Shown piece after piece: positions 1 to 64,000 of a DNA stretch of 64,000 nucleotides. The notes beneath the pieces were generated by a model that saw only the letters and a list, made by a program, of their open reading frames with translations, was not told the origin of the DNA and did no database searches. The DNA lies in contig NW_004457342.1 of the NCBI RefSeq assembly GCF_000313135.1, positions 50,729-114,728 of the forward strand, in the 5' to 3' direction. Origin of the DNA: Acanthamoeba castellanii str. Neff. Taxonomy: Eukaryota; Discosea; Longamoebia; Acanthamoebidae. Position 1 is the stretch's first letter; each line of letters begins with the position of its first letter. The translations under genes and the position numbers were made by a program.

Positions 1-75
1 TCACTTCGAGTTCAGTCGTTTCTTCTGTTCGCTCAGTGAGCTAATCTCTCGTTGTTTCTTCTTCTTTGATCACAG

Positions 76-303
76 TCCCCCGACGCTGTCCGCGCCAACG
101 GCCTGAACCTCGCTGGCGTCAAGTACCTCTGCATCAAGGCTGATGACCGCTCGGTGTACGCCAAGAAGAACGCCACCGGTGTGTGCTGCGTCAAGACCAG
201 CAAGGCTGTGCTCATCGCCCTCTACGACGAGAAGGTCCAGCCCGGCCAGTGCGCCAACGTGGTGGAGAAGCTCGCCGACTACCTCATCGCCCAGGGCTAC
301 TAA
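76..303 (+). CDS. Profilin, 3' terminal exon
   Basis: This is the last exon of an actin-monomer-binding profilin, which delivers ATP-actin to barbed ends and binds poly-proline and phosphoinositides in the cytoplasm. The 75 codons run from an intron acceptor (…gatcacag at 66-75) to TAA. They contain the family's C-terminal half, including LAGVKY, ADDRSVY, VKTSKAVL, YDEKVQPG and the end helix NVVEKLADYLIAQGY, which is very close to Acanthamoeba profilins as I know them. The 5' exons lie outside the window. Codons are CpG- and C-rich, typical of a highly expressed amoeba gene. Confidence 0.93.
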   Translation, partial: SPDAVRANGLNLAGVKYLCIKADDRSVYAKKNATGVCCVKTSKAVLIALYDEKVQPGQCANVVEKLADYLIAQGY

Positions 304-664
304 AGTGGTTCCCTCCCGATCTCAGGTAGTTTGACATCTTCTCGAGGCGGACCGTCTCGCCCCGTTCAATCATCTTGGCGCCTCGATGTGTCGCACACCT
401 CAGCCTGTAATATCAAAAACATAAATTGGTGTTTCACCACATCTCGAACCTTTTCTTCTTTGTGTTGAGCGGGTCTTGAACCGCGCCACACGAGAAACAA
501 GTCCAAAAAACCCGCCAAAAAGCACGAGGTTGTGAAAAGAGTGCCCCCCACCTTTTGGCCAATACAAACACACCAAGGAATTGAATGAAATTTCGACAAC
601 CACAAGGCCACAGCGACCCAGAGGGTCCTGCCCAACAAGATGAGCATAAGCATTGAATCCAACA
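304..664. other. Intergenic spacer, profilin to SET gene
   Basis: No convincing gene. It holds the profilin 3' flank and the presumed upstream region of the next gene. Base composition changes inside it: CpG is common up to about 490 and then nearly disappears. Confidence 0.5.
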
Positions 665-3600
665 ATGGAAGAAGAGGAGTTGCCCCTGATGCTCAGCTTG
701 GCCTCAATCTCCAGTGATTGGGAAGGAAATGAAGATGAGGGGCAAAGTGAGGACTATGAGGGGGAGGAGGAAGAGGAGGAAGAGACAGTCCCAAGCATCA
801 CAGCACAAGAGCAGGAGAGAAGAAGAAAGAAGAGTATTCTTGTTGACTTCATCCATGAATTGCTGCCCAAAGCTGTTGCAGCATTCCATGAGGATCAGGA
901 GCAGGTACAGCCCCTTTCTAGAGTATAACCATTCACAAACACTCATCATTCCCTGGGGACAGAAACTGGCTGTGCAGAGGCAAGAGGAACTGGCTGTGCA
1001 GAGACAGAGGCAAGGACTGGCCCATGAGGTAGGGACAGAGCTTCTCACCCTCTCTGTGCTCTAACTCACCACACCCACAGCCACTTCCTCTGCCACAGGC
1101 CAGAGAAGCCCCAGCCCCTGATCCTGTGGAGTATCTGCCCAGAGGACAACATTATGATCCAATTGTGGGCCAAATAGGAGTACCAGCCTCTGCTTAGCAT
1201 ATTGTTTTGGCCAAGTGTGCTGATGTGCTGTAAATGTTCTGGCAGAGACTTGACATCCAAATCCTCCCCTACATCCCATGGTGTGAGGGAGATGATGGAG
1301 TGCTGAGAGAAGTGCACCCTGAGTCACCATGGACCGATTTCTATCCACAGGGCATGTGGATTGATGATATTCACCACCAGTGGAAGGTAACTTTGTTTTT
1401 TCTGCAGACAACCTGGGTCCTCTCTCTTAAATTCTCATTCTACAGCAAGAGCATGATGGACTGCTACACACTATCTCTCAAGTGTATGGCACAGCCAGTG
1501 ATGCAAGGTCACTCATTACCCAAGCCTTCCATGAGGCATTGGGCTACCCTGAAGATGTGGTGCATGAACAGTACACCCTCCACCCTTTGCTTTGGGTCTG
1601 ATGAAGTTGTGTTCTCATCTGTCAAGTGCAGACTGGCCCAAGTATACCCAGAGCCTAGGCAGTACCACTCCCAATTCTGATGATTGTTTGTTTGTTTGCT
1701 GATGGGTGCTGCACAGGGTTTTTGGTCAAACTGTCAACCTGACCCACTGGTTCTGTCACATTTGCTATGAATTTGACTGTGGCCAACATGCACTGGTACC
1801 ACTCCCTTAAGGCTTCACAACTCCCATGACTGACTGGGTCTCTATCAGGGTGAAACAACTGAAGCAAAGCTGCCCTACCTCCCTGCATCAACAGAGGAGG
1901 AGGTTCTGGCACAGCACAGAGAGCACTGCAGCAAGGACTGTTCCTTTCTGGCTCTTAAAGCAGTGCAGGCCAGTCAGGAGCAAATTGAGCTCAGTTCTGA
2001 AGAAGTCCTGTGCTTCAGCTTGGTCTTCCCCCTCCATGGTCCCAACTTCTGTCAGATTGCTTGTGACCTTGGTGTGCAGGTACTCCCCCCATATCTGGGT
2101 CAGTTTTGAGAGATTGAAGATGACTGGTTGTGTTCAGGTAACCTGCAGCCAGGTGGGTGGCTTCTACTACCAGAGCAAGGAGGATGTCATGACTGCCCTT
2201 GTACAGGAACAAGATCAGATGATGCACACCAATGGTGCAGCACATCCCCACCTTGCCAATCTGCCATTTAACTTCTCACAAAAGGTGTGCAGAAAATTCA
2301 CAACCCAGCAGTCCAGCCAAAATCAAACAAAAGGTTAGAGGTTGTTTGTTCTCACTTCACAGCATCTCAATCTATCTTCCTCTTGCAGGAGATCATGAGT
2401 GGCAGAGAGCAGGAGAAGAAAGATGCCTACATGTATTGCACCTGCCAGGGCCAGTGTGACACTAATTGTCAATGCCTGCTCAATGGTATGGCCCCTCACC
2501 ATATTGCCTCTTTGTTCTAACTCTTTTTGTTCTTGCAGGAACAGGCTGTGAGATTCAGTGCTTGTGCCCCAAGTCATGCCACATTCACTGGAGGGGCTGC
2601 CATTGCCATGCAGGCAACAATGCATGTGGCACAAACCATGTATGTCACTCTATTCCCAGCATCACAGCACATTCCTCACTTCTTCAGCTAGTGTCCATGT
2701 TTCAAGGCTAGGAGGGAGTGCATGCCAGACCTGTGTGCTGCCTTCAAACCTGGACAAAAGAGCCACAGCTGTAACAACACCAACCTCTGCTACAGCCACT
2801 CAAAAAAGGTGAGTAATCATTCCATTTATTTGTATCTGTGTCATGATGTTCTAATTTGTACTAATGGCCTTTCAGAGGTTACTTGTTGGTTACAACAGTG
2901 CAATCCAAGGCTGGGGATTGTTTGCTGGTGAGCCTATCCATAAGGGTGAGTTCATTGGTGCCTATGCTGGTGAGGTACACTGCTCCTGCTTTCTGTGTGG
3001 CTTACCACAATGAACTTAACTGTGCCTCAGTATGTCTCTCCACAGGAGACTGCTGCAAGAGAAGAAGTTGTGCTGGCATCTAGGCAGCCCTCCTATATCT
3101 TTAGGCTCACCTCCAATGGGCCTCAACTTGATGCTGCTACCATTGGAAACAAGCTCAGGTTGCCCCACCCTCAGTCTTGTTGGTTTCTGCTCTAATCTTG
3201 GTCCCTGGGCAGGTTTGCCAATCACACTGAGGATGCAATAGCAAATGTGGGGGCCACCAACAAGACCATGGCTGGCCAGCAGCATGTCTACTTCTATGCC
3301 ACCAAGGATATCCCTACAGGCACCCACACACTCTTTACCAAACACAACACCATCCTTTCCTAACTTCTTTATACCACCAGGGGTGGAACTCCTCTATTCC
3401 TATGGAGCTGACTACAATTACTCTGAGATGTCTCCTCTTGATGCTTCAGGTACTCAACATCCTCCACCTTTTTACTGGTATCTCACATACCTTCAACTGC
3501 AGTGATAGCTGGGAAACAAGACAAGATTGGAAGGACCAGAGGACCCTTTCTGGTGGAACAGAGTGCTGGGCGTGTGACTTTTGTAATCCTTCCCTTGGTC

Positions 3601-3677
3601 ACTCTTGCTTTCAGTTTTGGAGAAGTAACAAAGTTCAACATGGTTCTATGCCAAAGGCTGTTTAGTGGAGGGTCATA
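665..3677 (+). CDS. Enhancer-of-zeste-like SET-domain methyltransferase, multi-exon
   Basis: This is probably the catalytic subunit type of a PRC2-like histone H3K27 methyltransferase. Exon 1 (665-904) encodes an acidic N-terminus. About 1840-2080 gives a cysteine-bearing SANT/MCSS-like segment ending VFPLHGPNFCQIACDLG, which parallels the FCAIARLIG region of EZH2. Exons 2390-2485 and 2539-2639 form the Cys-rich CXC domain (CTCQGQCDTNCQC, CLCPKSCHIHWRGCHC). 2712-2808 holds the pre-SET ECMPDLC, and 2876 onward starts the SET domain (GWGLFAGEPIHKGEF). RFANH and a YSYGADY segment match SET motifs, but the usual NHSxxPNC reads NHTEDAIAN. Short introns with GT-AG ends separate the exons, and some exon limits, especially 1440-1830 and the last exons, are uncertain. 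The whole gene has almost no CpG, unlike its neighbours. Confidence 0.82.
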
Positions 3678-3871
3678 GGCCACAGCCTGCAGCTGCTGAT
3701 TTACTCAATTTCGGTTTTGGGAAAGCCTTGTGTCATGGAACAACACCCCTCGGAGCTCTCCCAAATCACCAGATCGCTCCCTTCAACTTCTCCGCCGGCA
3801 ACCCCAACCAAAACCCGACAAACAAAGCGGCAGCACGAACGCAACAAAGTACCAAGAAGAAGAGGAAGAGG

Positions 3872-6065
3872 ATGGAAGAGGAGGCGACAGAGAAGCTCCT
3901 GCAGGATGAGGGCTTCGAACTGGTATCGCCCGACATCGACCGCGGTGCGCACTCAGTCGTATTTCGCTGCCGCGTGGTGAACACCAGGCGACGCCCGGAA
4001 GATGAGGTCGTTGTGGTGCCACCACAGCATAGCCACCGCCATCTTCACCTCCACCACCGCGACGGCGGCACGAAGATGAAGGAGCGGACAAATCATCGGA
4101 AGATGATGATGGAGATGAAGATGACGAAAATGGAGAGGCCAGCGAGGGGATCGAACACCGACAAAACAAGAGCCTCGAGGAGGGACAGGTGGTGCGGGTC
4201 AAGGTGCTCAACGTATCCCTGCCCCTGCCACGCCACCTCACCAACTTCCACCACGAGCACCAAGTGGTCGCCTCGCTCCGCGACGTGGAGGGCGTGGTGC
4301 GGGTCGTGGCCCGCCTGTCGCGGCCCGGCGTCGAGGCCCTCGTCGTCGAGGACTTTGGCGGCGAATCGCTCGACAAGTGGCTCGCCCGTGACGGCGCCTT
4401 CGCCTCACACGGCCTTGAGGGCATCCGCACCTTTCTCGCGCTGGCCCTCTCCATCACCCGCACGCTGGGCAACATCCACAGCCGCTCCGTGGTCCACAAG
4501 GACCTCAAGGTGCGTAGCCGGCTTTTTTTTTATTATTATTATTTGTTATTTGTTTGTTTTTTATCCGCAGCCCGCACCAAACCAACCGGAAAATGAAGCG
4601 TTCACTAGAAAGAACGAAAAGCGACAGAAAGAGCGAAAGAGACTCACGCGTTCACAGCCACACAACCTCATATGGAACAGAGATACGGGCGTGGTTAAGG
4701 TCTCCGACTTCGGCATAGCGTCGGTTGTCATTCGCAGCAAGGACACCACGTCGGCCCAAACGCAGGGCAAGCAGTCCGCTGTGCACCACGTGCTGGGCTC
4801 ACTCGCCTATCTCCCACCCGAGCTCTCCTTCCGCGCCACGGGGGGCAGCTCGTCGCTTTACACGGCCACGTCAGCGCCCTCTGCCGGCGGCGGCGGACAG
4901 GTTACGACCCGGCCGGTCGACTACCGGAGCGATTTCTACTCGCTCGGCGTGACCTTCTTCGAGCTCCTCTGCGGCACGCCGCCGTTTCGCGAGCGCTCGG
5001 CCGTGCGGATGATGCACGCCCACATGGCCAAGCAGCCGCCGCTGGCCCATGAGCTCAACCCGAACGTGCCGCGCTGTCTGTCGGCGGTGGTCAACCGGCT
5101 GCTGGCCAAGTCGGTGGAGGAGCGGTATCAGAGCAGCCGCGGCCTGGTGGCCGATCTGCAGCGATGCCAGGCCATCATCGAGGCCCGCGCGCAGGCCGAC
5201 GACGAAGTCGACGACGCCGAGAAGGAGCGGCTGGTGGCCAAAGCCGAGGCGGCCGAGCTGGCGTTCGTGCCCGGGCAGGACGACGTGTCGGACGTGTTCG
5301 CCTTTCCGGCCAAGCTTTACGGTCGCGAGGAGGAGACCAGCCGGCTGCAGGACATCTATCGATCCCTGTCGCACTCGCACGCTCATCCCAAAAACCAGGT
5401 GAACACGACGACACACGCACACACGCACACACGCACACGCACACACGCACACGCACACACGACACACGACACAACACATGCGCTCGAGCTCATCGTCGCA
5501 TGCATATTGCAGGTGTTGATGGTGGCGGGCTATTCTGGTGTGGGCAAAACGTCGCTGGTGGGCCAACTGCGGGAGGTCAAGCAGCAGGCCTACTTCATCT
5601 CGGGCAAGTACGACTTCAACAAGCGCGACGTGCCCTATTCGGCCATCGTGGCCGCCTTCTCCGACGTCATTCACCAGGTAATTGTTCATTTGTATTATTG
5701 AATTATTATAATACTTGTATTTATTATTCTTATTTAAATACTATGTTATAATCAATCTTTAACTTCATCTTTATTGCGATTATGTTTTATTTTATTTATG
5801 GTACTTCAATTTTGCGGGGACAGATTCTGGCCGAGGAGGAGGAACAAGTGAGCCGGACGAGGGAGAGGCTGCGCGAGGCGGTCGGCACGAACGGCCAGCT
5901 GCTGGTGAACGTGATTCCGAGCCTGGAATTGCTGATCGGCGAGCAGCCGGCGGTGGAGCTCGACCTGGGGATGTCGGAAATGCAAAATCTCTACAACCAA
6001 CTCTTCACGCGCCTAATCGACGTCTTCTCGAGGTATTTGCTCCTTTCTCTTTTTGTTGAGCGCAA

Positions 6066-6097
<32 letters not shown>

Positions 6098-9000
6098 CTA
6101 ACGTGCACACAGCATCAAGCCAGGGCAGCCGTTGATCATGTTCCTGGACGACTTGCACTGGGCCGATCAGCCGTCGTTCCTGCTGATTCAGAAGATTGTG
6201 TGTCGCACGCCGTCGACGGGGAGCGGTCCGCTGCTGCTGGTGGGTGGCTATCGCGACAACGAGGTCAGCCCCACGCACCCGCTGTGGATGCTCCTCGACG
6301 AGTTCCGCAACAAGGGCGTCCAGTGCAACAGCATTCTTCTCGAGGTACGCACTGTACACAGTCAGTCACACCACCTGGTGACTACTACGATGGGCGATCA
6401 CGATGGAATCTCACGCATGCAACCAAACAAACGTTACACCCAGCCTCTGGGGATTGACGATGTAAATAGGATGGTGGCCGATGTGCTGCACTTTGCCGAG
6501 GCGCCGGAGAGCACGCTCAAGCTCTCGGAGCTGGTGTTCACGAAGACCAAGGGCAACCCGTTCTTCACCATCAGCTTCCTCACCAAGCTCCATCAGAACA
6601 GCTCATTGTACGACTCTCTCGCTACTATCGTTCATGTGTCGGGGGGGGGGTTGTGTTGGCGTGGGTTGGCCCAGTAATACATAAATGGCGCGTGCAGTGG
6701 TTCGACTACACCAGGGGCTGTTGGCAGTGGGACCTGGAGAAGATCGAGGGCATGCAATACACAGACAATGTCGTCGAGTTCATGGCACAGGATCTGCGCA
6801 AACTCCCCAACGAGGTGCTTGCTTGTTCGCCCCACGCTACGATGTGACGTGCTTTCGCTGAGTGGACGTGGGCGCGCAGACTCTCGGTCTGCTGGAGGTG
6901 GCCGCCTTCTTCGGGGGCAAGTTCGATGTGCGGGACATTGCCGAGTATGTGTCGATGCCGGTCGAAGCCGTAGAAAACCTACTCTGGCAGACCCTTCATC
7001 AAGGTGCCTCTTTCAACCGTTCCCACCGTCTTCTTGGCTTGAGCTGGGACTGTGTGTTGCGGACCCTGGCTAAGGTTGGTTGGCGTCGGTGCCCGCCCAC
7101 ACAGGATTCGTGATGCGTTCCGGGGACTTTGACTATCGGTTCCTGCACGATCGCATGCAGCAGGCGGCCTACGAGTGTGTGCCGCCCGACCGGAACAAGA
7201 CGATGCACCTGGACGTGGCCCAATTCCTCATGACCAAAGTCAACACCAAAGAGGACTTCACTGTACGCTCTCTCGCCCCCACCTGCGGTCCACTTTTGCC
7301 TGTCGATTCATAAATTCACACACAACGCGTGTTCAGCAAGCGACGTGGAACCGGAAGCAAGAGAGCTCGAACGAGCAACAACGATTCGACATCTTCGACG
7401 TTGTGTATCACTTCAGCGAAGCTGCCGATCTCATCCAGGACCCCGAACAGCGGCTCGTCATCGCGCGGCTCAACCTCAACGCCACCATCAAGGGCAAGAA
7501 CTCAATGGGTGCGGCCACACAATATTCTTATTCTTATTATTATTTCGTTTTCCTGTCGTCATAATAATTAATGTGTATTTTTTGGTATTGGCAGCGTATG
7601 AGATGGCGCGTAAGGTGGCGGCTCAGGGAATCGAGATGCTCCCGGCCGATAGGTGGGAGTCGCAGCACAACCTCGCCTTTCAGCTCTACCTGGGTATATA
7701 CCACCCTCTCTCATCTATCTTGGTCGCCAATACCCGACCACTGACTGACTGACTGCCACACACACACACACACAAACAAACAAAAAAGAGCGGGCGCAGT
7801 GCGAGTACCTGTGCAAGAACGTCGAAGCCGCGGAGCAACTCTTCAGCGCGGTGGTAGAACATGCCAAGGACGCGTGGGAAAAGAACGAAGTCTACATTCA
7901 GCGCAACCAGATGTCCACCTGCATGCAGCGCTATGATGTACGCACAGCTCTTCTTCAACTCTCTTGACAGGTGTGGCTCATCATCGTGCTGGCCACCTAT
8001 CGACAGGACATGATCTCGTACGGGCTGCAGGGGCTGGCCGCGCTCGGCCTGGACCTGCCGGCCGACCCGGACAACGAAATGGTGCAGCGGGCACTCAAGG
8101 AGGTCGACCAGCTGCTGGCCAACCGCCAAATCTCCGACCTGCTCGACGACCCGCCGGCCACCGACGAAAGGGCTATGGTGCGCACCATCCCCATCATACC
8201 GAATTGTGCTAATGTAGTAGTTTTCAAATGCTCTGTGTTGTGTTGCCAGGTTATTCAAAAGCTCATCAGTAAGATGGCTGTTGGTTACTACTTCGTCAAG
8301 CCCAATGCCTACACTCTCGCACTGGCCACCGGCGTACGACTCCCTTTGTGTTGCAATGGGGGGGAACAACAATCAATCACTAACCTTTGCTTATGTGCTT
8401 ACGTGTGCATGTGTTTGCGTGTGTTGTTTGCAATTCCCAACAGGTCAAGACAAGCATCCAGTACGGCCACGTGGCGCACTCGTCGCTTCTCTATGCCTGG
8501 TACGGCTGGGTAGCTTGCGGGATTGCCAAGCGGGTACTGCTCTCCCTCGCCGTTGCAAAGAAGACTTCTTCTTTTTGAGGGGCGCACTGATCGTTGTCAC
8601 TTTTGGTCGTGCTGGCTGCAGTTCCGAGAGGCCTACCAGTGGGGCAAGTTGGCCATCGATCTGTGCGAAAAGCACTACGCGCATTCACGCTTCGCTGATC
8701 GCGGAGAGGTGTGGGAGATCTTCTACTGTACGCACATTATCGCCTGCGTGTTCTGCGCGTACGCGAATGCTGATTATAATATGATTACATTGTGGCAGCG
8801 TATCTCAACTGGTTGAAATACCCGTTGAGCGAGTCCATCCAAGGATTGGAGCTCGGATTCAAGCACGCAGTGGCTGGCGGTAATCCAGCCTTTGGCACCG
8901 GGTGCGCTTACAACCTCGTCGGCAGCCTGTGGTACAGCGTGCCTCTGCCTCAGATCGTCTCTTGCAGCGGTGCGTTCTCTCTCTTCCCGCGGGTGTCGTG

Positions 9001-25192: not shown

Positions 25193-25196
25193 TTAA

Positions 25197-50922: not shown

Positions 50923-50938
50923 TGTCGATGCATTTATG

Positions 50939-54278: not shown

Positions 54279-54428
54279 ATGGCCATGTGGTCCATTGCCA
54301 TCAAGCTCCTCAGCCATAGCGCCCACACCAATGTTGCATGGATGCTGGCGCTGCTCATGCTGATGGCCATCCTTGTGGTGGTGTTGGCCAAGATTGTGTT
54401 CAATGCTGACATCTTTGGTGACCAGTGA
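54279..54428 (+). CDS. Small membrane protein, 5' truncated at transposon edge
   Basis: An open frame starts after TGA near 54200 without ATG (DLIHKGWTHQHIYTLASALI). It continues from Met 54279 through HTNVAWMLALLMLMAILVVV and LAKIVFNADIFGDQ to TGA 54426-54428. A strong single membrane helix. The missing 5' end abuts the Mutator-like element. Confidence 0.5.
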   Translation: MAMWSIAIKLLSHSAHTNVAWMLALLMLMAILVVVLAKIVFNADIFGDQ

Positions 54429-54465
54429 ACACTGCGTTTTTTCATGTGCACTTAAGCAAACCACC

Positions 54466-54756: not shown

Positions 54757-54792
54757 AAGAAGCCCTTTGTAATATATGTGTCTGCATGCAAC

Positions 54793-55173
54793 ATGGAAAT
54801 TGGTGTCATCCCCATCATCATGCACCACAACACCAATGATCACCTGATCACATGGCTGTCTAATCCACTCTGGCCTCACACCATGCTGAGTTGCTGTTCT
54901 TGCCCATTGGACGCATGCCACTGCTCATGCCATGTGAATTCTGGAAGCATGCACATCATGGCATGCTGCAGGACCTGTCCCAAGTGTGGTGTCAACATCC
55001 ACCTGGCCAAGTACAATGATCACATGAAATCATGTGACAATTATGATGATGATGACAATGATGAAGATGTGGAACACCGCTGCAAAAAGCTCTTTGGTCT
55101 GACCATGAAGCAACAGATGTGGCTGTTCATTGCACTCATCACAATAATGGTGGTGGTGGGACTCATGTGTTGA
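54793..55173 (+). CDS. Zinc-finger protein with C-terminal membrane helix, 126 aa
   Basis: ATG 54793. Cys/His-rich region (SCCSCPLDACHCSCHVN; CCRTCPKCGVNIHLAKYNDH, a C-x2-C…H-x4-H type knuckle), an Asp-rich linker encoded by a GATGAT run, then QMWLFIALITIMVVVGLMC. Intact. Possibly a membrane-anchored zinc protein of the virus-like set. Confidence 0.6.
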   Translation: MEIGVIPIIMHHNTNDHLITWLSNPLWPHTMLSCCSCPLDACHCSCHVNSGSMHIMACCRTCPKCGVNIHLAKYNDHMKSCDNYDDDDNDEDVEHRCKKLFGLTMKQQMWLFIALITIMVVVGLMC

Positions 55174-55382
55174 ATGAATACATCTTGTCAATAGCTCATG
55201 TGCAACACCCAAGATGGCATCACACAAGCATCACTGTCATCTGATGATGAATCCTCATCAAAGTCCTCATTGCAGTCACTTCATTCATTGTGCACTTTGC
55301 ACCACTGCTGCTTCCACTTTCGCCATTTCTTTTTTGAAATGTGTGTGTGTTTTGAGTAGGTGTTGTTGTCATCATGATCAGA
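55174..55382. other. Spacer with TGA-only open frame on the minus strand
   Basis: Reading the next minus-strand gene past its TGA gives a frame whose stops to about 55220 are all TGA, in a basic context. It could be a decayed Arg-rich tail. No independent gene is seen. Confidence 0.3.
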
Positions 55383-55589
55383 TCACTTGTCCTCAGATCC
55401 CATATCAGCAGATTGCTTGTGGCCAGTTTTGAGTTTTGGGATGGGTTTCATTGCACTGACCTGCCATACCTGGATGTGCTTGTTTGGATCCTGGCTTGCA
55501 CAATCCATCTTGCCCATTGCATTGCAAAGCAGGATATTGTTGCGCTTGGCCTTGAGGAGGCTTGGGAAGAGCAGCTTGTGTAGCTCCAT
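55383..55589 (-). CDS. Virus-like small basic protein, 68 aa
   Basis: ATG 55589 (MELHKLLFPSLLKAKRNNIL) to TGA 55385-55383, with IQVWQVSAMKPIPKLKTGHK. The stop may be a decayed CGA (see the spacer to the left). 43 bp downstream of the larger minus-strand gene. No family recognised. Confidence 0.45.
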   Translation of the reverse strand: MELHKLLFPSLLKAKRNNILLCNAMGKMDCASQDPNKHIQVWQVSAMKPIPKLKTGHKQSADMGSEDK

Positions 55590-55631
55590 GGGCGTTGGGA
55601 TGGAATTGCATGAGAGGTCAGCACAGTGGCA

Positions 55632-56945
55632 TCAGTAGCTGGGCATGATGATCTTGTTGTGCTTATAGCACTTGGTCTTGATGGTGTTGAATACAACAAA
55701 GAACCAGATGGTGTTGGAACAGTGCTTGGCCTCCTTGTTGGGGCACCACCAGCAGTCAGTCTTGGTGATGTAGTAGCCCCCAGTGGCCTTGTACTCAACT
55801 GATGTCACACTCTTGCAGTCCATGTAGTGGTGTTTGGCGCACAGGGTCTCCATTAGCAGCCAGATGATGCAATTGCAATTGATTGTGAGAGGTTGTTGGC
55901 TGACCTTGTAGTTGGGATTGTGTGGTCTGACTCGCTCCCTCTTGCTGATTCCCTTTGTGATATGGCGCTCTTTGTGGATGTGCTGGCGCCTCAGCTCATC
56001 TTGAGAGAGGCCATCAATGAGATCCAATTCCTTGATCTTCTTGACCCAATCCAGCATCTTGGGTGGTTCCATGAGCACACCATTGGGCTGATGTAGAGTG
56101 CAGCAGTCAAACTGGGCATTGAGGTTGTGCTGCAGCATGTTGAGCTCCTGTGGTTGTGGGGCGCCTGATCCATTGATGATAGGCATGACCAATGTGCGTC
56201 TTGCTGACCTCAAGACATGTCATGCAGGGCAGGAGCTGATTGGGAGTGACACATTTGCACTTTGGATGCACATCAGTGGTACAACACAGCACCATCTCCT
56301 TGGGTTTGGTCTTGCCCTTGCTGCCACATGCATGGCACTTCTTGGCCTTGGCTGATGCAAACATGTGCAAGCTGTTGGGCTTGTAGACTGACTCATTGAG
56401 CACACTCACCCATTGATTGTAGGCTGGCCACTTGCCAAAGGCCTTGTGGAGGTGGTGGATGATGGTGCAGCAGATGGTGCATGCCACCTGCACATTGACC
56501 TTGACGCCTGGCCAGAAACCATGGAGGCTGAACTTGTACATTGGTGAACTGGGCTTGTTGAATGACATGGGTGACTGATAGATGATGAGCTGCAGTTTGT
56601 AGTCATCCAGCTGTGTGTAGAGCTTGTGCATGAGCTTCTGGATGATGGCGACGATGGTGTTGATATTGTCCTGTGACATCATGCATGGTGGAAATTGAGA
56701 TTGAAGAAGAACAGAAAGTAGTTGGTGCGCTGCTTGATGAAGTAGGATGGTATGCTGTGGTGGGTGTTGGCGAGGTAGAGCCACTTGAACTTGTTGAGTT
56801 GATTGTCAGGCATGTAGAGCATGAACCTGCTGAAGCTGAGGTGGCTCTCAATTTCGTGGTTGTACTTGAGCTGGTTGTTGTTGTGCTTGTAGTGATAGAA
56901 GGTCTTGGCATTGTGTGGCTTGCGGCTGGTGGTGTGTTCATTCAC
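55632..56945 (-). pseudogene. Virus-like protein with central zinc-binding motif, two frameshifts
   Basis: ATG 56945 (MNEHTTSRKPHNAKTFYHYK) runs to about 56690. One shift leads to MMSQDNINTIVAIIQKLMHK and a Cys-rich module CHACGSKG…CCTTDVHPKCKC…CMTC (56330-56210). A second shift near 56190 leads to QELNMLQHNLNAQFDCCTLH, IINCNCIIW-type sequence, CWWCPNKEAKHCSN and a stop at 55632. Total about 437 codons. The Cys spacing suggests a treble-clef or ribbon zinc site. Function unknown; transcription-factor-like roles are possible but unsupported. Confidence 0.5.
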
Positions 56946-57060
56946 ACATGCTGTCTATGTGCTCATGAGTGCCATCCCCATGATAGCAAGAGCGCCTCCC
57001 AGGGCCACTCATGGGATGTTGCAACAGTGTTGGTCATGGTGGTATGTGTGAAAAAGTTTG

Positions 57061-57537
57061 CTACAGTGGCACACATATGGTTTCTCTGTATGCAATGCTG
57101 CCAGTGATGTTGGCCATGAATTGTTCAAGCACGGCCTCCATGACTGGTGTGTTCTTGGGGTCATTGTAGACATGCTTGGAGAGCTTGCTGGTGATGTATG
57201 TGTCAATGGCCTCCTTGTGTGCATTGCAAGGTCGTTGGGCTGTGATGAAGTGCAGTTGCAGTTTGCGTCAGGCAAGCAACAGGGCTGTTATCTGGAATGG
57301 GTTGTTGGCGCACATCATGTATTGGTGCTTGGAAAGTGTGGTGTGGCTGCTGTGTGTCATTGCAAGGTAAAGGTTGTATTGCCACTTGGTGTCTCATGTG
57401 GTGCTGTTGAGCAGCAAATCTGCAAACATCCAGTGGATGCTGATGCTGATGAACTCACCCATGTCACTCCATTGCTTCACCCAGGTGTGGCAAAACATGG
57501 ATATGGCCATGGTGGTGTGATCCTCTTCAGTGGCCAT
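57061..57537 (-). pseudogene. Virus-like gene with two in-frame TGA
   Basis: ATG 57537 (MATEEDHTTMAISMFCHTWV) to TAG 57063-57061 in one frame. It includes GEFISISIHWMFADLLLNST, then TGA 57394-57396, DTKWQYNLYLAMTHSS and SKHQYMMCANNPFQITALLL, TGA 57268-57270, then LQLHFITAQRPCNAHKEAID, TYITSKLSKHVYNDPKNTPV and EAVLEQFMANITGSIAY. Both TGA follow the pattern of a lost Arg (TT*DT, LA*RK). Composition is clearly protein-like, unlike the antisense plus-strand frame. Confidence 0.6.
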
Positions 57538-57663
57538 GGTGTGTGTGTTATGTGTTGGTTGGATGGCTGATCCCAAGCAATACCAACATTTGTGTGTGCC
57601 CAGTGGTTGTCATGGGTGACCATTGGTGTGTCCAAAATAAAATTTGTCACTGTGTGCATCAAC

Positions 57664-57999
57664 ATGGATACTGTGAGATTTACAATCAGCTGGATAGTGG
57701 ACAACACCATCCAAGAGCCACTGCACACACTCTACATGGGTGGCCCATTGCTGGGAGGGTACAGATTCTGGGAATTGCTGCCTGACAAGGAGATCTGCGC
57801 CATGATGATGGGTGTTGAGGCGTCCTTCTGGTGCAGATTGGAGGCATCAATCGCCATGTGCAACCAGCAGATCAAGTGCAAGGTGGACACATTCATCATT
57901 GGCATCATCAGATCTGTCATTGGGGCCCTGCTTGTGCTGACTGTGGCAAAGCATGGCATGCAGGTGTGTACTGGTGCATCTGATTGTGAACACCATTGA
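57664..57999 (+). CDS. Membrane-associated virus-like protein, about 111 aa
   Basis: ATG 57664 (MDTVRFTISWIVDNTIQEPL), then LGGYRFWELLPDKEICAMMM, CRLEASIAMCNQQIKCKVDT and a hydrophobic helix FIIGIIRSVIGALLVLTV. The annotated end is a TGA at 57999. A one-base shift near 57950 would instead give LVHLIVNTIEKRRYAHRPIH, a more typical cytosolic tail, so a small indel is possible. Confidence 0.5.
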   Translation: MDTVRFTISWIVDNTIQEPLHTLYMGGPLLGGYRFWELLPDKEICAMMMGVEASFWCRLEASIAMCNQQIKCKVDTFIIGIIRSVIGALLVLTVAKHGMQVCTGASDCEHH

Positions 58000-58035
58000 G
58001 AAGAGGAGGTACGCCCACCGCCCCATCCATGATGA

Positions 58036-58455
58036 CTAATGACCATGATTTGAGAAACAGAACATGGTGGTGTAGCCAACGCCAGCACTTGGATCATATG
58101 GCTGGATGGTGAACTTGTAGTCACCCTTGAAGAGCCAGTATGGCATGTTGATCTGATGCATGCTGGTGACAATCTGGTTGTACAGGCTCGAGTAGTGGCC
58201 TGGGATGGGACCAACAAGATTGTACTTGAACCCAGATCTGGTCACCATGGCGTTTCTGTTAATGCTGACAGGTGCATTCCACTTGATCATCCAGTTGCAC
58301 CCACTCACCAGTGACTGGGCATCAGCCACCTGGCCCATGTTGGGGTTGAATGTGCTTGCGGTGTTGGCCTCCAGGATGGAGACATGGGGCAGCTGCAGCA
58401 ACTTGTTCTGGGTCTTGTAGAAGTTGCAGTGATGGGGACATTTGTTGGATTCCAT
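58036..58455 (-). CDS. Virus-like orphan protein, 139 aa
   Basis: ATG 58455 (MESNKCPHHCNFYKTQNKLL) to a stop at 58036. Beta-rich composition with SGCNWMIKWNAPVSINRNAM, VGPIPGHYSSLYNQIVTSMH and YDPSAGVGYTTMFCFS. Intact, intronless, CpG-poor. Divergent from the next gene by 14 bp. Not recognised. Confidence 0.55.
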   Translation of the reverse strand: MESNKCPHHCNFYKTQNKLLQLPHVSILEANTASTFNPNMGQVADAQSLVSGCNWMIKWNAPVSINRNAMVTRSGFKYNLVGPIPGHYSSLYNQIVTSMHQINMPYWLFKGDYKFTIQPYDPSAGVGYTTMFCFSNHGH

Positions 58456-58469
58456 TATGGGTGTACATC

Positions 58470-58871
58470 ATGGCCCATGAGAAAAAATGTGTCTGCCCAT
58501 CACAAAATCTGAACACAACAGCACCAATGGAAACACCATTCTCTCATTTTCACGTCCATCAGACCATGAAGCCCACTCACCTGGCTGGGATCCACATCAT
58601 CACATGTGTGGACAAGGACAGCGTTGCACAAGTTTGTGGATACAAACTGCATCACAAATTCAAGGATGCGCAGATGGTGTCATTGATGTATTGGATTGCC
58701 AGTGAGTGCTCAGTCATCATTGGCCCCCACACCAGCTGCAGGTTTGCCTGCCATGCCCTCAGCAAACAACTCATTGCCCTCACCCACAATGGCCAGCTGC
58801 CTTGTCACATGAATCACAAAACCACCCTCACAGCGACCTCAATTGAACACACTCTCTCACAATGTCCATGA
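58470..58871 (+). CDS. Virus-like orphan protein, 133 aa
   Basis: ATG 58470 (MAHEKKCVCPSQNLNTTAPM), HLAGIHIITCVDKDSVAQVC, LMYWIASECSVIIGPHTSCR, stop TGA 58869-58871, which overlaps the ATG of the next gene by 10 bp. Intact; function unknown. Confidence 0.5.
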   Translation: MAHEKKCVCPSQNLNTTAPMETPFSHFHVHQTMKPTHLAGIHIITCVDKDSVAQVCGYKLHHKFKDAQMVSLMYWIASECSVIIGPHTSCRFACHALSKQLIALTHNGQLPCHMNHKTTLTATSIEHTLSQCP

Positions 58872-59134
58872 GCCAACAAGGTTGTCATCATTGGAGGAAT
58901 TGGGACATTTGCATCATTCATCCCATTGGCCAATTGGATCATGATCCTGAAATGGAGTCCATTGTGGATGAAAGTCAGATCCCAACCAAACTGCCCAAGT
59001 GGGACTTGCTCTACACACCTGGTGTGACCAACTGATGGCGCCATTGTGATGATGGCAGCATCATGCACATCAAAATTGTCAAGGCAGCACATCGCCATGA
59101 GCTCTTCCTGCTGTCCCCCTCACATCCAAACTAA
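58862..59134 (+). pseudogene. Virus-like gene with one in-frame TGA
   Basis: ATG 58862 to TAA 59132-59134 in one frame: CHHWRNWDICIIHPIGQLDH, MESIVDESQIPTKLPKWDLL, YTPGVTN, TGA 59033-59035, then WRHCDDGSIMHIKIVKAAHR and LLSPSHPN. The TGA sits where Arg is plausible. The compact overlap with both neighbours is typical of viral gene spacing. Confidence 0.55.
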
Positions 59135-59465
59135 CACCCACATCACATGTCCAGATCCATCATTTGAGCACACACCAAAGACCAAACCCAAACCAACAAA
59201 CCACAAGTTTGTGCAGTTTCAGCAACCACTCCTGGGCACAAATGTGACCAATGAAGAGCTCTTGGAGTGTGCCATCACCAAGATCAAAACTGCAGAACTG
59301 CAACAAGCCATCTGTCTCAACAACATCAAGAAACAGCCAATAGGGTCAGATGACAACTACAACAGCTTCCTCAAGAGTGACTACAACAATGATGATTTCA
59401 GTGATGAAAGCAATGATTACAATCTCATCTTCAAGTGCAACAATGACAACAACTTTGATGAATAA
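59097..59465 (+). CDS. Acidic Asn/Asp-rich tail protein, 122 aa
   Basis: ATG 59097 overlaps the previous gene. The chain has FEHTPKTKPKPTNHKFVQFQ, LGTNVTNEELLECAITKIKT, then a strongly acidic Asn-rich tail (DYNNDDFSDESNDYN). It ends GATGAATAA, overlapping the next ATG. Intact; likely disordered C-terminus. Confidence 0.5.
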   Translation: MSSSCCPPHIQTNTHITCPDPSFEHTPKTKPKPTNHKFVQFQQPLLGTNVTNEELLECAITKIKTAELQQAICLNNIKKQPIGSDDNYNSFLKSDYNNDDFSDESNDYNLIFKCNNDNNFDE

Positions 59466-59691
59466 AAATTTGTATTATCTCAGGATCCTGCCACACAACA
59501 TGAATCAGGTGATCTACAGAGGTGAAAGCCACACACTCAATCATCACAAGAGGAAGATCCACAATCTGGTGCTCAAGCACACCAGAGTGTGGGCTGAACC
59601 ATGCTGCAAATCCTTCACCTGGATCCTCCACCTGAAGATCCTGTTTGCCTATCCAATGACCAAGCTCTGCTGGGGCGATGGCCAACTTTGA
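59458..59691 (+). CDS. Small basic virus-like protein, 77 aa
   Basis: ATG 59458 lies within the previous stop region. MNKNLYYLRILPHNMNQVIY, KRKIHNLVLKHTRVWAEPCC. Its end overlaps the next ATG (59678). Intact; family unknown. Confidence 0.5.
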   Translation: MNKNLYYLRILPHNMNQVIYRGESHTLNHHKRKIHNLVLKHTRVWAEPCCKSFTWILHLKILFAYPMTKLCWGDGQL

Positions 59692-60034
59692 CACCTTTGT
59701 CCAATACTTTACCAACACCACAGTGACAATCCTGCAGGATGGCATCATCATCAACTGGAAAACAGGCCACATCAGTGTGCACTGGAAGTTCTCAACATAC
59801 TTGAGCAAGACCAGTGTGCACCAGGTGGTCAACAACGCCTACCTGGGGATCATGTGTGATGGCAAGTTTGTCCAGTGGATGGAGTTTCTCAATGGTCGTG
59901 TCAAGATGATGCAAGCTGCCAGGGTGCTCTCCTACAGCAATGGCCCCAATGGCATCATGAAGCCCTGGCCAGCTTTCATTCCTGGCAAGGAATCGTGCCA
60001 CGCCATTGTCACAGTGTTGTGTCCATTGCAGTGA
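59678..60034 (+). CDS. Virus-like orphan protein, 118 aa
   Basis: ATG 59678 (MANFDTFVQYFTNTTVTILQ), then NNAYLGIMCDGKFVQWMEFL, ending IVTVLCPLQ, TGA. Intact beta-rich protein. It is the last of four plus-strand genes overlapping head to tail, and is convergent with the next gene. Confidence 0.55.
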   Translation: MANFDTFVQYFTNTTVTILQDGIIINWKTGHISVHWKFSTYLSKTSVHQVVNNAYLGIMCDGKFVQWMEFLNGRVKMMQAARVLSYSNGPNGIMKPWPAFIPGKESCHAIVTVLCPLQ

Positions 60035-60040
60035 TCTTTG

Positions 60041-60650
60041 TTACTCAAACAAAAAGCCCACATATTTGAGCATGTACAGATTCATCTTGATCACCATGGG
60101 TTCTGCTGAATTGTTGGTGTGTCCAGTTCTGATGTGCAGGATGAAGTTGCCACCACTGGACCCAATCATGGTCACATGATCTGCTTTGCACATGAAGGGT
60201 CTGAATTCACACAGCCCAACCTTGAGGTTGACCTTGGCCTTCAAGTCACCAAACTTGTGGTGGGTGTTGTGGTACATGTCAGTGTGATCCCATTTGGTGA
60301 TGCACTCACCATCCTCACTGAGCATGTGTGCCTCTTGTATTGCCCAGATCAATGAAGGAGCAGGACAGTGCAAACCCAACACATCCCACCACACCCAGCA
60401 GTTCAAAGGAGAAACTGTTGGATCCAACCTCAATTGAGGATCCAATCAGCACTCTCTGGATGTGCAGCAGGATGATGTTGTCAACAGCCCACTCAGACTC
60501 AATTGTGCTGCACACCAGCATGCATGTGAACTCCACCTTGACTGACTCAACGGCAGGCTCATCAGTGAAGGTGAGACAGATTGAGTAGTGCTCAGGGTCG
60601 CCCTTCAGGATGCCCAAAACACTGTGTCTGGAAAAAGGTGCCAGTGGCAC
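60041..60650 (-). pseudogene. Virus-like protein, frameshifted and lacking a start
   Basis: The frame opens after a TAA with GTG, no ATG (LGILKGDPEHYSICLTFTDE). It continues VKVEFTCMLVCSTIESEWAV, shifts by one base near 60350, and goes on EAHMLSEDGECITKWDHTDM, LKVGLCEFRPFMCKADHVTM, MIGSSGGNFILHIRTGHTNN, stop 60041. About 200 codons. The missing start places an edge of the virus-like block near 60650. Confidence 0.5.
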
Positions 60651-60890
60651 CTTTTGTTAAGTAAAATCTGTACAAGTGATATATGTGTATGTGCAGCGAA
60701 AGCAGTACTTTTGTGAACATGGTGTGTGAGTGGTTTTGGCAAATTATGTACAGAGAGTGGCAAAACAGGGAAAAATGGTGTAGGTCATGGTAAAAGCAGA
60801 TGGGGCCAATGAAGAATTTCAAGGCATAAGTGTAAAAAAGGGCAAATGTATTTTGTTGGAATGAGGAACAGAACAGAGTGGAGGGAAACA
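60651..60890. other. Boundary spacer and 3' flank
   Basis: No gene. AT-rich 3' flank of the minus-strand gene to the right. Confidence 0.35.
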
Positions 60891-63755
60891 TTAGCCAATG
60901 GACTTCTGCACTTTCCATGGACCAGAAGAGGAGGAGGAGCTGGTCTTGGGTGTGAGAGGGGCAAGGGCAGGATGTGAAGTTAGGCCTTGTAGGAAGGAAG
61001 TGATGGCTGTGAGATCTGACTCCTCCAGGAATTTAGAGTGGAAGGTGAGGAGCCAGTTGCCAAGAGAGGAGATGTTGCCCTCTGCTATGGGGGTAGAGGA
61101 GAGGCAGACAAAGCTGGAGTAAAGGGCAGCACAGAAGGAGAGGTAGTAGGTGGGATTTGCCTCATAGAGAATGTGGTAGGGGGTGGTGGGCGATGTGATG
61201 GGGTGGGGAGAAGGATTGGGAAGCTCTAAGCTCTGGATGAGGAAGCTGTAGAGGCCAATGTGAAGCGGGGTGCGGTCCAATGATTGAGCAGTGAGGAAAG
61301 CAGGAGCAGAGCGGACAACCTCACACGTTGGGTGTGGGATGGGGATGTGGTGCAGATAGCAGAAGGGTTCAGGGATGGTGTCGCTGGCCAGAGGATGCCA
61401 GATGGCAGACATGTTAACCCTCTTGTGGCTGAAGATGAGAACATCAAAGCCACTGATGAGAGGTTCAGAGGTGGGCATGGAGCTGGAGTAAGTTGGGGAG
61501 CTGTAGTAGAAGTGGAGTAGGTGGAAGACCTGGAGGGTGGAGTGTGACTTGAGTGAGGTGATGGCGTTGGCGATGTTGGAGGGAGATGAGGAGATGTAGA
61601 ATCCAATGCTGTAAGACTTCAATAGGTGAGTTGCTGCATTGTTGATGTTGAGAGGAATGTCTGCACTGTGGATGGTAAAGTTGTGCATGTAGATCAACAC
61701 CTGTGGAAGAAAAAAACTGGTGGACAACAGGAATAAGTGAAAAACCAATGTGCATTGGGAAAAGTGTCGACAAATAAAAAACCAATGCGCATCAGGAAAG
61801 CAATGCAGGCCAATAAACGCACTGGCCATTCATGGAATTGTGTTGGTTGGCCAAGAAGCTTGGTGAGCGGCTCAGTGAATTGGGGGAGATACTTTTTGTG
61901 GAGAGCAAGCTCTGCCTTGTGCTTGATGGTAGATGGCGACTTTTCCTCTTCAGCCTTACCCTTGCCACATTTCTTGGTAGCTGTAAAGAACAAGCATGTG
62001 GTGAGCTTGGAACTTTACCAGCAAAATGAAAAGTACTGGTTGGGGTGGTCAGAGTGGTGCCAGAAGCTTCAGCAGCAGTGGGTACTGCAGGCTGAAGTCA
62101 GATAATAGTGGTGTAAGTGAAAGTAATGGGGTGTGAATTGGAACAGGAAGGAGTTGATTTGTACCATTTTCCCCTTGGCCAATGCAGAAAGACGCCAGCG
62201 CTGTTCACTTGTGGACATTGAGGCAAGGGATGCCTCCTCTGCTCAAGAAGCTGCAGTGGCACATGCAATCTCCCCTCATAACTGGCGAGGTGTGGTCTCC
62301 TCTGCCTCATCACTGAGAAGTTTCAACTGGAACAGGTGCTTGCGGAACGTGTTGACAACTTCAGAGGTGATGCTGTGGGGCTGCTCAATCTCAATGTTTT
62401 TACCACGCGGCGCAATGTATTCCACAACACAGATCCAGTCCCAGATGTGGTGAAGCTCCTCAGGATCTTCACAGCAGCAGTCAGCCTCCATGGCTGCATG
62501 AACGGCCTGATGAAAGGCCTCCATCTGCCTTTTGATCATGCTCCAGTGGTTGGTGATTAGCGACCAGAAGTTCTCTGGCAAGAGGGAAGTAGTTAGACTT
62601 GTGGGGAGAAGAACAAAAGAACTAAAGAGAAAGGACATACTCTTGGAAGGGGCTTGGTGTTGATAGCACTTATAATGATGAAGCACAGTGATCATGTCGT
62701 TGGCACTCAATTCCCTGAAGGCACCAGAGTTGAGGTTGTCAAGGGAGATGAACACCTGACCCTCTGGAACGAGGCAATTGAGTTCCTTGATAAGACTGGA
62801 AAAGGGGAACAGTTAGCGAGGACTCAAAACAAAGGTGAAGAGTTAGAGTAGAAATAACATACTCCACCACTCCTGGAGCATGGAACAGGGCCCTTAAGGT
62901 AGTTGAGTACTTCTGCAGAGTGGTGGGCTTTGGTGCAGCATGACCCTCAAGTGTTTTCTGTGAGGTGTGGGGTGATGAGTAATGGTTTGAAATACAAAGG
63001 TGGTGGACATACCAGGTGCTCAGCGAGAGCATTGTAGTCAGTAACAGTTTTTTTGCCACATGTGATCTGGAAGAGTGGGTTTTGGCCAAGGGTGTAGTAG
63101 TTCAGGGCCTTCTTGAAAGCATTCAGGATGACTGAGCCCACTGAGTTGATGTAGTTCTCAAAGCTGGAGATGCAGTTGAGGATGATCCAGCTGAGTTCCA
63201 TCCCTGCAGCTGCTGGCACAACTTCATAGACATTCTCCCACTGCCAGTGCTCAATGAGGTTCCAGACCACAACTCTGTGGTTACAATCAATGGCCTCTGG
63301 AAGGTTAAAAGTTAGTACCCAAAAAAACCAATGTGCATTGGGAATTGTGAATAGCCTAAAAACTGTATGGCCATGAGTGCAGCTAAAATGAAGTGGTGTG
63401 GGAAGTAATACCAAACTCATCAACATTGTTTCAGTCAAGGCGCTCATCTTCATTGAGAAATCTAACAATGAAGGGCTTGGTTGTGAGACACCCTCCATCC
63501 ACAACAGACTGCAGCAAGTGACGAATTCCTGGAACTGTCACTGGGCGATGCTGTTCTGATGGCAGTGCAGGTGGTTAGCAAGTGAAAGCATCTACACATT
63601 GCCAGAACGAAAAGAGGAGTTGTACCAAAGATGGTGCAGTTCTGCACGTCAAGGTGGTGTGATGTGGGTTGAACCCAGGTATGGTGCAAAGTTGAAGGGT
63701 TGATGCAATTGAGCTGCTCCTTCTGCTGGTGAATTGCTTGGTCATTGCAGGTCAC
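60891..63755 (-). CDS. Unidentified multi-exon gene, CpG-poor, with in-frame TGA
   Basis: Minus-strand exons, right to left: NDQAIHQQKEQLNCINPSTL (63730); RHLLQSVVDGGCLTTKPFIV (63500) with TGA at 63431; AIDCNHRVVVWNLIEHWQWE then NYINSVGSVILNAFKKALNY (63290-63020); KTLEGHAAPKPTTLQKYSTT; NLNSGAFRELSANDMITVLH; FWSLITNHWSMIKRQMEAFH then GKNIEIEQPHSITSEVVNTF (62570-62300) with TGA at 62276; HKAELALHKKYLPQFTEPLT (61900); and a last exon from about 61700 (IYMHNFTIHSADIPLNINNA … GPWKVQKSIG). Introns are 60-120 bp. No family recognised; it could be host or transposon-derived. The gene may start beyond 63755. Confidence 0.5.
61745..61796. repeat. Palindromic repeat pair in an intron
   Basis: CCAATGTGCATTGGGAAAAG then, 36 bp on, CCAATGCGCATCAGG. 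The first is the TG form, the second keeps the central CG. It lies in an intron of the minus-strand gene. Confidence 0.8.
63327..63343. repeat. Palindromic repeat, single intronic copy
   Basis: CCAATGTGCATTGGG with the same flanks (run of A before) as the copies at 61745 and 63899. Confidence 0.8.
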
Positions 63756-63889
63756 CTGAAGGCTGGCGCTGATGATGTTGGGGTTGGACTGAAGTGATTG
63801 GAAATTCAGGAGTGTATGAATTTTCGTTTCTGAATAGTAAGGTTGAGGTCAGCAACACAAACTGTTAGAGAACATGGTTCTCACAGGTC

Positions 63890-64000
63890 GAAAATAAAAC
63901 CAATGCACATTGGGAAAAGAGTCAACAAATAAAAAACCCAATGCACATTGGGAAAAGAGTCAACAAATAAAAACCCCAATGTGCATTGGGAAAAGAGTTG
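63890..64000. repeat. Three tandem palindromic units
   Basis: Three copies of a roughly 40-bp unit: CCAATGCACATTGGGAAAAG twice, then CCAATGTGCATTGGGAAAAG, joined by GTCAACAAATAAAAA. The window ends inside the array. Confidence 0.9.

What the first reader, a model, noticed from the sequence alone, without database searches (positions are those of the whole stretch)
1..64000. Sharp, patchy CpG depletion that tracks foreign or silenced DNA
Seen: host-like genes (1-500, 3750-19850, 29000-35380, 47600-51300) are CpG-rich, while 650-3740, 19900-27900, 35400-36950, 38500-46700 and 52900-63800 have very few CpG and abundant TG/CA. Borders at about 3740 and 35380 are sharp. Exon 1 of the SET gene (240 bp) has no CpG at all. 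Known: methylated CpG decays to TG/CA, and methylation-marked endogenous giant viruses have been described in another unicellular eukaryote (Amoebidium). Inference: the depleted blocks are or were methylated.
Basis: partly seen in the sequence, partly recalled or inferred. Interest (0 to 1): 0.9.

Follow-up and report, generated by a model that had tools for sequence, protein, structure and literature searches.

The report
Methylation scars erase CpG in amoeba
In the amoeba Acanthamoeba castellanii, virus-derived and repeated DNA that is probably silenced by methylation has lost nearly all its CG letter pairs by mutation inside the genome, leaving a readable scar that also makes copies of such DNA look older than they are.

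Summary
The CpG depletion is real: a two-state segmentation puts 31.2 of 64 kb in CpG-poor blocks (o/e 0.03-0.32; one 2,236-bp stretch without CpG). The window is Acanthamoeba castellanii Neff, whose virus-derived and transposon DNA is already published as 5mC-silenced; that idea is not new. The decay itself I did not find described.

Copies inside the genome show the loss is acquired. In 6 of 9 duplicated-block alignments 85-94% of differences are CG/TG/CA exchanges (other three 48-70%); in 26 repeat alignments the median is 76%. Many are TG-versus-CA pairs, which need a lost ancestral CpG. Five CpG-rich host pairs give 13%, with one such pair. In 11 of 21 repeat copies the per-base CpG rate is about 400 times that of other sites (conservatively 44-265). 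YCGR sites go first and RCGY last, while strand choice nearly ignores the flanks, against UV or APOBEC-like causes and for methylation occupancy.

Unexpectedly, in older repeat copies and the kinase block, nearby CpGs tend to have mutated on the same strand over hundreds of bp. Independent deamination does not predict that; a RIP-like active mutator is possible, not shown. 5mC was not measured here.

The parts
531..3745 (.). CpG-poor block (o/e 0.03, 5 CpG in 3.2 kb; none between 1335 and 3571); single copy, no domain recognised in the frames scanned
   Evidence: composition; only one further hit, 69 bp; 4 open frames, no Pfam match
19880..27922 (.). CpG-poor region (blocks 19880-20445, 20860-22847, 23630-25258, 25621-27922) broken by CpG-rich islands at 20446-20859, 22849-23626, 25260-25616; partial copies on C175 and at C190:119190-121630
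35294..37038 (.). CpG-poor block (o/e 0.32); a 667-bp partial copy on C248 (85%) not compared
38035..46761 (.). CpG-poor giant-virus-like insert (o/e 0.24), with partial duplicates on C126 and C207
37986..40787 (-). 934-codon open frame, repetitive; best named relative Medusavirus stheno T3 (55% identity over 51% of the query)
44307..45815 (-). open kinase frame, CpG-poor; identical to an annotated Neff protein; nearest named virus protein Pandoravirus japonicus (38%); copies L003 and L004 used for the decay test
52940..64000 (.). CpG-poor block (o/e 0.14), reaching the window end
53097..53723 (-). piece with a weak MULE transposase match (E 0.0027, below the Pfam cut-off)
56110..56805 (-). 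piece matching the AEP_C962R primase domain (25.4 bits, cut-off 23); the only match found in the genome at E <= 0.001
60618..64000 (.). dispersed repeat, 25 loci fetched, 87-98% identical; holds a 312-codon open frame (60894-61829, minus) whose counterpart in copy L028 matched 8 proteins, 5 from Acanthamoeba and 3 unnamed
3751..19879 (.). CpG-rich host block (o/e 1.05), kinase, AAA and GAF domains
27924..35289 (.). CpG-rich host block (o/e 0.91), F-box domain
46765..52939 (.). CpG-rich host-like block (o/e 1.06), EGF-kinase frame

Best explanation
The CpG-poor blocks are silenced DNA of Acanthamoeba castellanii Neff (a Medusavirus-like insert, a dispersed repeat, other unidentified DNA) that lost its CpG inside this genome. 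Shown, for the blocks that have copies: CpG changes to TG or CA largely independently in each copy, after copying, far faster than other sites; the same is not seen in five CpG-rich host pairs; CpG is also low next to repeat insertions; YCGR sites go first and RCGY last, while strand choice nearly ignores the flanking bases; in older repeat copies and in the kinase block nearby sites tend to be hit on the same strand over hundreds of bp. Inferred: the substrate is 5-methyl-CpG kept by the amoeba's DNA methyltransferases as part of heterochromatin, and the thymine left by deamination is poorly repaired (one UDG-family enzyme was found, of UNG type). The same-strand clusters most likely arise because deaminated bases gather on one strand before replication, for example in long-lived cysts, and are later broken up by gene conversion; this last step is conjecture.
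For: Kinase ORF against copy L003: 200 differences, 191 transitions, 182 CpG-type, 77 TG/CA pairs. Repeat against CpG-richer copy L028: 121 transitions, 5 transversions; L028 CpG became TG 44, CA 59, kept 34. Five independent host pairs: 190 transitions, 331 transversions, CpG-type share 0.13, CpG/other ratio 1.5, one TG/CA pair. 21 repeat copies: CpG kept 0-23% except L028 (80%), private non-CpG change 0.07-1%; rate ratio median 433, range 152-1855, in 11 copies; conservative 44-265 in 11 comparisons. Halo: 10 of 19 repeat left ends lie in DNA with CG share 0.22-0.44 at 700-1500 bp but 0-0.07 in the nearest 100 bp. Flanks: YCGR kept 8 of 503, RCGY 55 of 243. C5-methyltransferase matches on 4 contigs; one UDG-family match. 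5mC on TEs and viral genes in Neff is published (PMC12344493, PMC12210455; abstracts, named sections and passages read).
Against: 5mC was not measured at these coordinates. Same-strand clustering is not expected if each site deaminates independently. The three youngest repeat copies, the window's own included, show little or none (0.53 at under 25 bp against 0.65 in older ones), so one process may not explain all. Three of nine duplicated-block alignments have a CpG-type share of only 0.48-0.70, and repeat alignments go down to 0.38. The roughly 400-fold ratio is far above the tenfold or so usually quoted for methylated CpG in vertebrates (recalled). HhH-GPD/MBD4-like T:G glycosylases were not searched.
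Confidence: 0.78

Rival explanations
1. A RIP-like active mutator: an enzyme, perhaps a DNA methyltransferase acting processively on one strand, converts CpG cytosines in foreign or repeated DNA to thymine in bursts.
For: CpG transitions with very little other change; same-strand concordance 0.635 under 25 bp, 0.578 at 25-100, 0.549 at 100-400, 0.505 at 400-1000 against 0.50 in within-site shuffles (z 10.5, 13.6, 13.9, 1.8); in six mutually unrelated copies 0.625, 0.550, 0.550, 0.523 against 0.513, 0.499, 0.509, 0.503; seen again in the kinase block and at short range in other duplicates; copies hit largely independently (39 of 45 pairwise concordances lie between 0.41 and 0.58).
Against: The most depleted block has no other copy today. 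Concordance is far from complete, and near absent in the three youngest copies. The flank effect acts on the CpG as a duplex and hardly on the mutated strand. No sexual stage or RID homologue was tested.
Confidence: 0.2
2. Composition inherited: the virus or transposon was already CpG-poor on arrival.
For: No free-relative DNA could be obtained for a comparison, and blocks without compared copies are untested.
Against: TG/CA discordance between copies needs CpG in their ancestor; one repeat copy is still CpG-richer; DNA beside repeat insertions is depleted too; protein exchanges lean from relative to window in the CpG-decay direction in 10 of 10 comparisons, for example 55:11 (Medusavirus stheno) and 53:6 (Pandoravirus), with control exchanges 12:13 and 15:7; two Medusavirus comparisons (14:5, 17:8) are not significant.
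Confidence: 0.02
3. UV damage: dipyrimidines holding 5mC deaminate in sunlight-exposed amoebae or cysts.
For: CpG survival falls with the number of pyrimidine-preceded cytosines: CCGG 1 of 446, GCGC 73 of 478 in poor blocks; YCGR 8 of 503 kept, RCGY 55 of 243 in repeat copies.
Against: At repeat sites with one pyrimidine-preceded strand the mutated cytosine is on that strand 284 times and on the other 336 times (p 0.04 the wrong way); in three other blocks 13:17, 12:12 and 14:11. UV, and TC/CC-preferring deaminases, predict the pyrimidine strand.
Confidence: 0.03

Closest known systems
5mC-silenced endogenous giant viruses and transposons of Acanthamoeba (PMC12210455, PMC12344493)
   Same: Same strain, same classes of DNA, CpG methylation, heterochromatin; 85-95% identical duplicated viral regions; decay by point mutation in general is proposed in PMC12210455, and PMC12344493 notes that 5mC is mutagenic.
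   Different: CpG decay is not described in the sections and passages read ('deamination' and 'dinucleotide' 0 hits in PMC12210455). Here most differences between copies are CpG changes, so such duplicates are younger than raw identity suggests (for example 14% raw, 1.4% without CpG).
Giant-virus endogenization in Amoebidium (PMC11244446)
   Same: Hypermethylated viral inserts in a unicellular eukaryote.
   Different: No CpG decay in the passages searched ('deaminat' and 'CpG depletion' 0 hits).
Repeat-induced point mutation in fungi (PMC9246332, PMC2621366; passages read)
   Same: C-to-T change with little else; a CpG-preferring type is reported for Microbotryum; strand-coherent runs are a hallmark (recalled).
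   Different: DNA with no other copy is also depleted; coherence is partial; no repeat requirement, sexual stage or RID enzyme shown.
CpG depletion of methylated vertebrate DNA (recalled)
   Same: Methylation-linked CpG to TG/CA loss.
   Different: Confined to blocks beside CpG-rich host DNA, deeper (o/e down to 0.03), with a much larger rate ratio.

Membership tests
5mC-silenced endogenous giant virus DNA of Acanthamoeba | genes of giant-virus origin | tested here: met
   Medusavirus stheno relative of 37986-40787; Pandoravirus relative of the kinase; AEP_C962R domain at 56110-56805. Met for 38035-46761, weakly for 52940-60617, not for the other blocks.
5mC-silenced endogenous giant virus DNA of Acanthamoeba | CpG hypermethylation and silence at these coordinates | not testable with these tools
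   No methylation or RNA data held; published for Neff viral regions in general.
5mC-silenced endogenous giant virus DNA of Acanthamoeba | partial copies scattered in the genome | tested here: met
5mC-driven CpG depletion | CpG-specific transitions acquired after copying | tested here: met
   host control
5mC-driven CpG depletion | independent site-by-site decay on either strand | tested here: inconclusive
   largely independent between copies, but same-strand clustering within older copies and little in the three youngest
Repeat-induced point mutation (RIP) | C-to-T hypermutation with few other changes | tested here: met
Repeat-induced point mutation (RIP) | strand-coherent runs | tested here: inconclusive
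   present but partial; near absent in the youngest copies
Repeat-induced point mutation (RIP) | restricted to duplicated DNA | tested here: not met
   531-3745 has no other copy beyond 69 bp and DNA beside repeats is depleted; former copies cannot be excluded
Repeat-induced point mutation (RIP) | RID/Masc1-type methyltransferase and premeiotic timing | not tested
   methyltransferase pieces found but not classified

The most novel reading that the evidence does not exclude
Acanthamoeba has an active, RIP-like genome defence: a strand-processive, methylation-linked process that mutates CpG in foreign and repeated DNA in same-strand tracts of hundreds of bases, the first such system known outside fungi.
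Probability: 0.18. Interest if true: 0.88.

Novelty: new variant of a known kind. Interest (0 to 1): 0.62.

Why it matters
CpG loss is a sequence-only marker of probable past silencing: it could flag viral and transposon DNA in assemblies that have no methylation data. It also distorts dating: the 12 copy pairs, about 4-16% diverged by raw identity, differ by only 0.2-2.4% outside CpG, so age comparisons by raw identity of viral duplicates in this strain may mislead. A recent survey concluded that 5mC does not substantially shape base composition across eukaryotes (PMC12695648, passage read); here it may do so locally. The same-strand clustering makes it testable whether an amoeba mutates invaders actively; a review calls RIP the only known exploitation of 5mC mutagenicity so far and says it may well have evolved outside fungi (PMC9246332, passage read).

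Tried and rejected
18S search for the organism did not complete; the organism was named from a 100% protein match on a contig of the same length. DNA of free giant-virus relatives was sought in viral contigs with five queries; none was confirmed. Phage tblastn of the 934-codon ORF gave 8 records, mostly tail-fibre-like, under 60% identity. Pfam passed its cut-off for 2 of 40 poor-block pieces scanned, a part of the 312 frames of 90 codons or more; NCBIfam passed for none of 6 window pieces; the primase piece had no solved-structure match. SET gene: not found. UV and APOBEC-like deamination: rejected on strand choice. A first kinase alignment used the window copy in the wrong orientation; its rows with that copy are void and were redone. 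'Host pair' lines that involve L055-L062 are tandem-repeat islands of poor blocks, not host controls, and that output was cut; one search replaces them. Paper searches for this decay or for RIP in an amoeba or protist: (two returned no paper); none found in the listings.

Caveats. One search's direction test can also reflect a general GC-to-AT drift. One search's shuffles do not control for site effects; those do. Relatedness of a few copies could inflate one search's z values; in six mutually unrelated copies the effect stays but also reaches 400-1000 bp (0.523 against 0.503), so its length limit is uncertain. In one search the blocks 42909-43753 and 41016-41636 (17-25 sites) are mostly not significant. 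Some depleted flanks may be insertions into already silent DNA: 9 of 19 stay at 0.01-0.08 out to 1500 bp.

Full report
Observation. CpG o/e in 500-bp steps falls from about 1 to 0-0.3 in blocks, with TG and CA raised to 1.5-2 and GpC normal. A two-state HMM gives 31,233 bp poor and 32,737 bp rich, with sharp borders. Variance/mean of CpG counts is 15.7 against at most 1.07 in 200 shuffles.

Where it is. The window lies at C190:50729-114728 of a 38.4-Mb genome in 250 contigs. Its CpG-poor kinase is identical to an annotated protein of Acanthamoeba castellanii Neff on a contig of the same length, 294,834 bp. In that strain 5mC is CpG-based and enriched on young transposons and on genes of viral origin (PMC12344493: abstract, sections 6 and 9, passages), and viral inserts are hypermethylated heterochromatin (PMC12210455: abstract, sections 9, 10 and 16, passages). 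The genome holds C5-methyltransferase matches on four contigs; the best resembles HaeIII-type enzymes and, more weakly, DNMT1.

What the poor blocks are. 38035-46761 is giant-virus-like: the 934-codon frame is 55% identical to a Medusavirus stheno protein over half its length, the kinase has a Pandoravirus relative at 38%, and partial copies lie on C126 and C207. 56110-56805 holds the only AEP_C962R primase match found in the genome; a weak, sub-threshold MULE match lies nearby. From 60618 to the window end runs a dispersed repeat; the counterpart of its frame in L028 matched 8 proteins, 5 from Acanthamoeba and 3 unnamed. 531-3745, the most depleted block, has no other copy beyond a 69-bp hit and no Pfam match in the four frames scanned.

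The loss is acquired. Kinase ORF against L003: 191 transitions, 9 transversions, 182 of 200 differences CpG-type; against L004: 153 of 168; L003 against L004: 140 of 157 (a TG/CA pair counts as two differences). TG-versus-CA pairs require a CpG in the ancestor, hit on different strands in the two copies. Repeat copy L028 has o/e 0.69 where the window has 0.20; of 137 L028 CpGs aligned, 34 are kept in the window and 103 became TG or CA, while 7 of 3,378 aligned positions differ otherwise. Over all alignments of 300 bp or more the CpG-type share is 0.85-0.94 in 6 of 9 non-repeat alignments and 0.48, 0.69, 0.70 in the others (pooled 0.85); in 26 repeat alignments it is 0.38-0.95, median 0.76, pooled 0.77. 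Control: five independent CpG-rich host kinase pairs (from 17 loci, identity 87-90%) have 190 transitions and 331 transversions, CpG-type share 0.13, one TG/CA pair, CpG/other ratio 1.5.

Rate and spread. Of 25 repeat loci, 4 were second views of a place and one was too short; 20 plus the window copy were used. CpG kept is 0-23% except L028 at 80%, with private non-CpG change 0.07-1%. In the 11 copies with at least 80 CpG sites the per-base ratio has median 433 (152-1855); counting every non-CpG difference from L028 against the copy gives 44-265 in 11 comparisons. Outside 19 repeat left ends the CG share is 0.014 in the first 100 bp, then 0.035, 0.082 and 0.172 at 700-1500 bp. In 10 of the 19 it reaches 0.22-0.44 at 700-1500 bp yet is 0-0.07 in the nearest 100 bp, as expected if silencing spreads; the other 9 stay at 0.01-0.08, so they may be insertions into already silent DNA.

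Context. In poor blocks CCGG is nearly gone (1 of 446 CG+TG+CA) while GCGC persists (73 of 478); rich blocks: 118 of 464 and 251 of 667. In 20 repeat copies YCGR is kept 8 of 503, one-sided sites 87 of 707, RCGY 55 of 243; three other duplicated blocks and the window/L028 pair show the same trend. Yet at one-sided sites the mutated cytosine is on the pyrimidine-preceded strand 284 times and on the other 336 times (p 0.04), and 13:17, 12:12, 14:11 in the other blocks. The flank effect thus acts on the CpG as a duplex, as methylation occupancy would, and hardly on the mutated strand; UV and TC/CC-type deaminases do not fit. One UDG-family match was found, with a UNG-type motif (motif recognised from recall), which would leave T:G from 5mC unrepaired by that family.

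The unexpected part. Within a copy, nearby lost CpGs share the mutated strand more often than chance: 0.635 under 25 bp, 0.578 at 25-100, 0.549 at 100-400, 0.505 at 400-1000, against 0.50 when states are shuffled among copies at each site (z 10.5, 13.6, 13.9, 1.8). Copies agree with each other about half the time (39 of 45 pairs between 0.41 and 0.58) and site effects are small (chi2/df 1.33). In six mutually unrelated copies the effect holds: 0.625, 0.550, 0.550, 0.523 against 0.513, 0.499, 0.509, 0.503 (z 8.4, 5.1, 9.2, 5.6), there reaching beyond 400 bp; one of them, L030, has a copy-wide bias of 98 TG to 34 CA. The kinase block shows it too (0.72 and 0.65 under 25 bp for window and L003, expected 0.53 and 0.52), as do other duplicates at short range; two small blocks mostly do not. 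It is near absent in the three youngest repeat copies, the window's included. Passive deamination with lesions gathering on one strand before replication (cysts) and later gene conversion could produce it; so could a processive enzyme. I rate the passive route higher, because DNA without other copies is depleted too and coherence is partial.

Free relatives. No DNA relative was confirmed in viral contigs. At protein level, exchanges from relative to window in the CpG-decay direction against the reverse are, for the 934-codon frame, 55:11, 14:5, 17:8, 70:11, 58:11 (the first three Medusavirus; 14:5 and 17:8 not significant) and, for the kinase, 53:6 (Pandoravirus), 48:13, 44:5, 34:16, 39:12; control exchanges are 12:13, 0:2, 4:7, 14:18, 17:17 and 15:7, 10:14, 12:14, 14:10, 16:17. 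General AT drift could also contribute.

Novelty. Methylated viral inserts in this strain are known. I found no account of the CpG decay, its context rule, its rate or its strand clustering in Acanthamoeba (listings; sections or passages of PMC12210455, PMC12344493, PMC11244446, PMC12695648). A review calls RIP the only known exploitation of 5mC mutagenicity so far and says it may well have evolved outside fungi (PMC9246332, passages).

Noticed in passing
20446-20859 and 22849-23626: 18-bp tandem repeats stay CpG-rich inside poor blocks but also have very high TG; comparison of the second with its copy shows CpG-type differences there too, so it seems to be decaying from a denser start.
   Followed up: partly
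25193-25275 and 28711-28793: 83-bp inverted repeats, 95% complementary, bound a segment with a partial copy on C175 ending at the same repeats: perhaps a mobile element with terminal inverted repeats.
   Followed up: no
41372-42100: 138-bp tandem repeats in a frame with a weak Kelch match, inside the virus-like block.
   Followed up: no
63896-63998; related sequence at about 61740-61800: 38-bp minisatellite near the window end; matches to window 61740-61800 also occur as tandem arrays near other repeat copies on C200, C173 and C44.
   Followed up: no
L028 (C200:720988-723370): A repeat copy that has kept 80% of CpG sites though its left flank is CpG-poor: recent insertion into silent DNA, or escape from methylation.
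   Followed up: partly
51951-52416: 15-bp tandem repeat, CpG-rich, in a host-like block.
   Followed up: no
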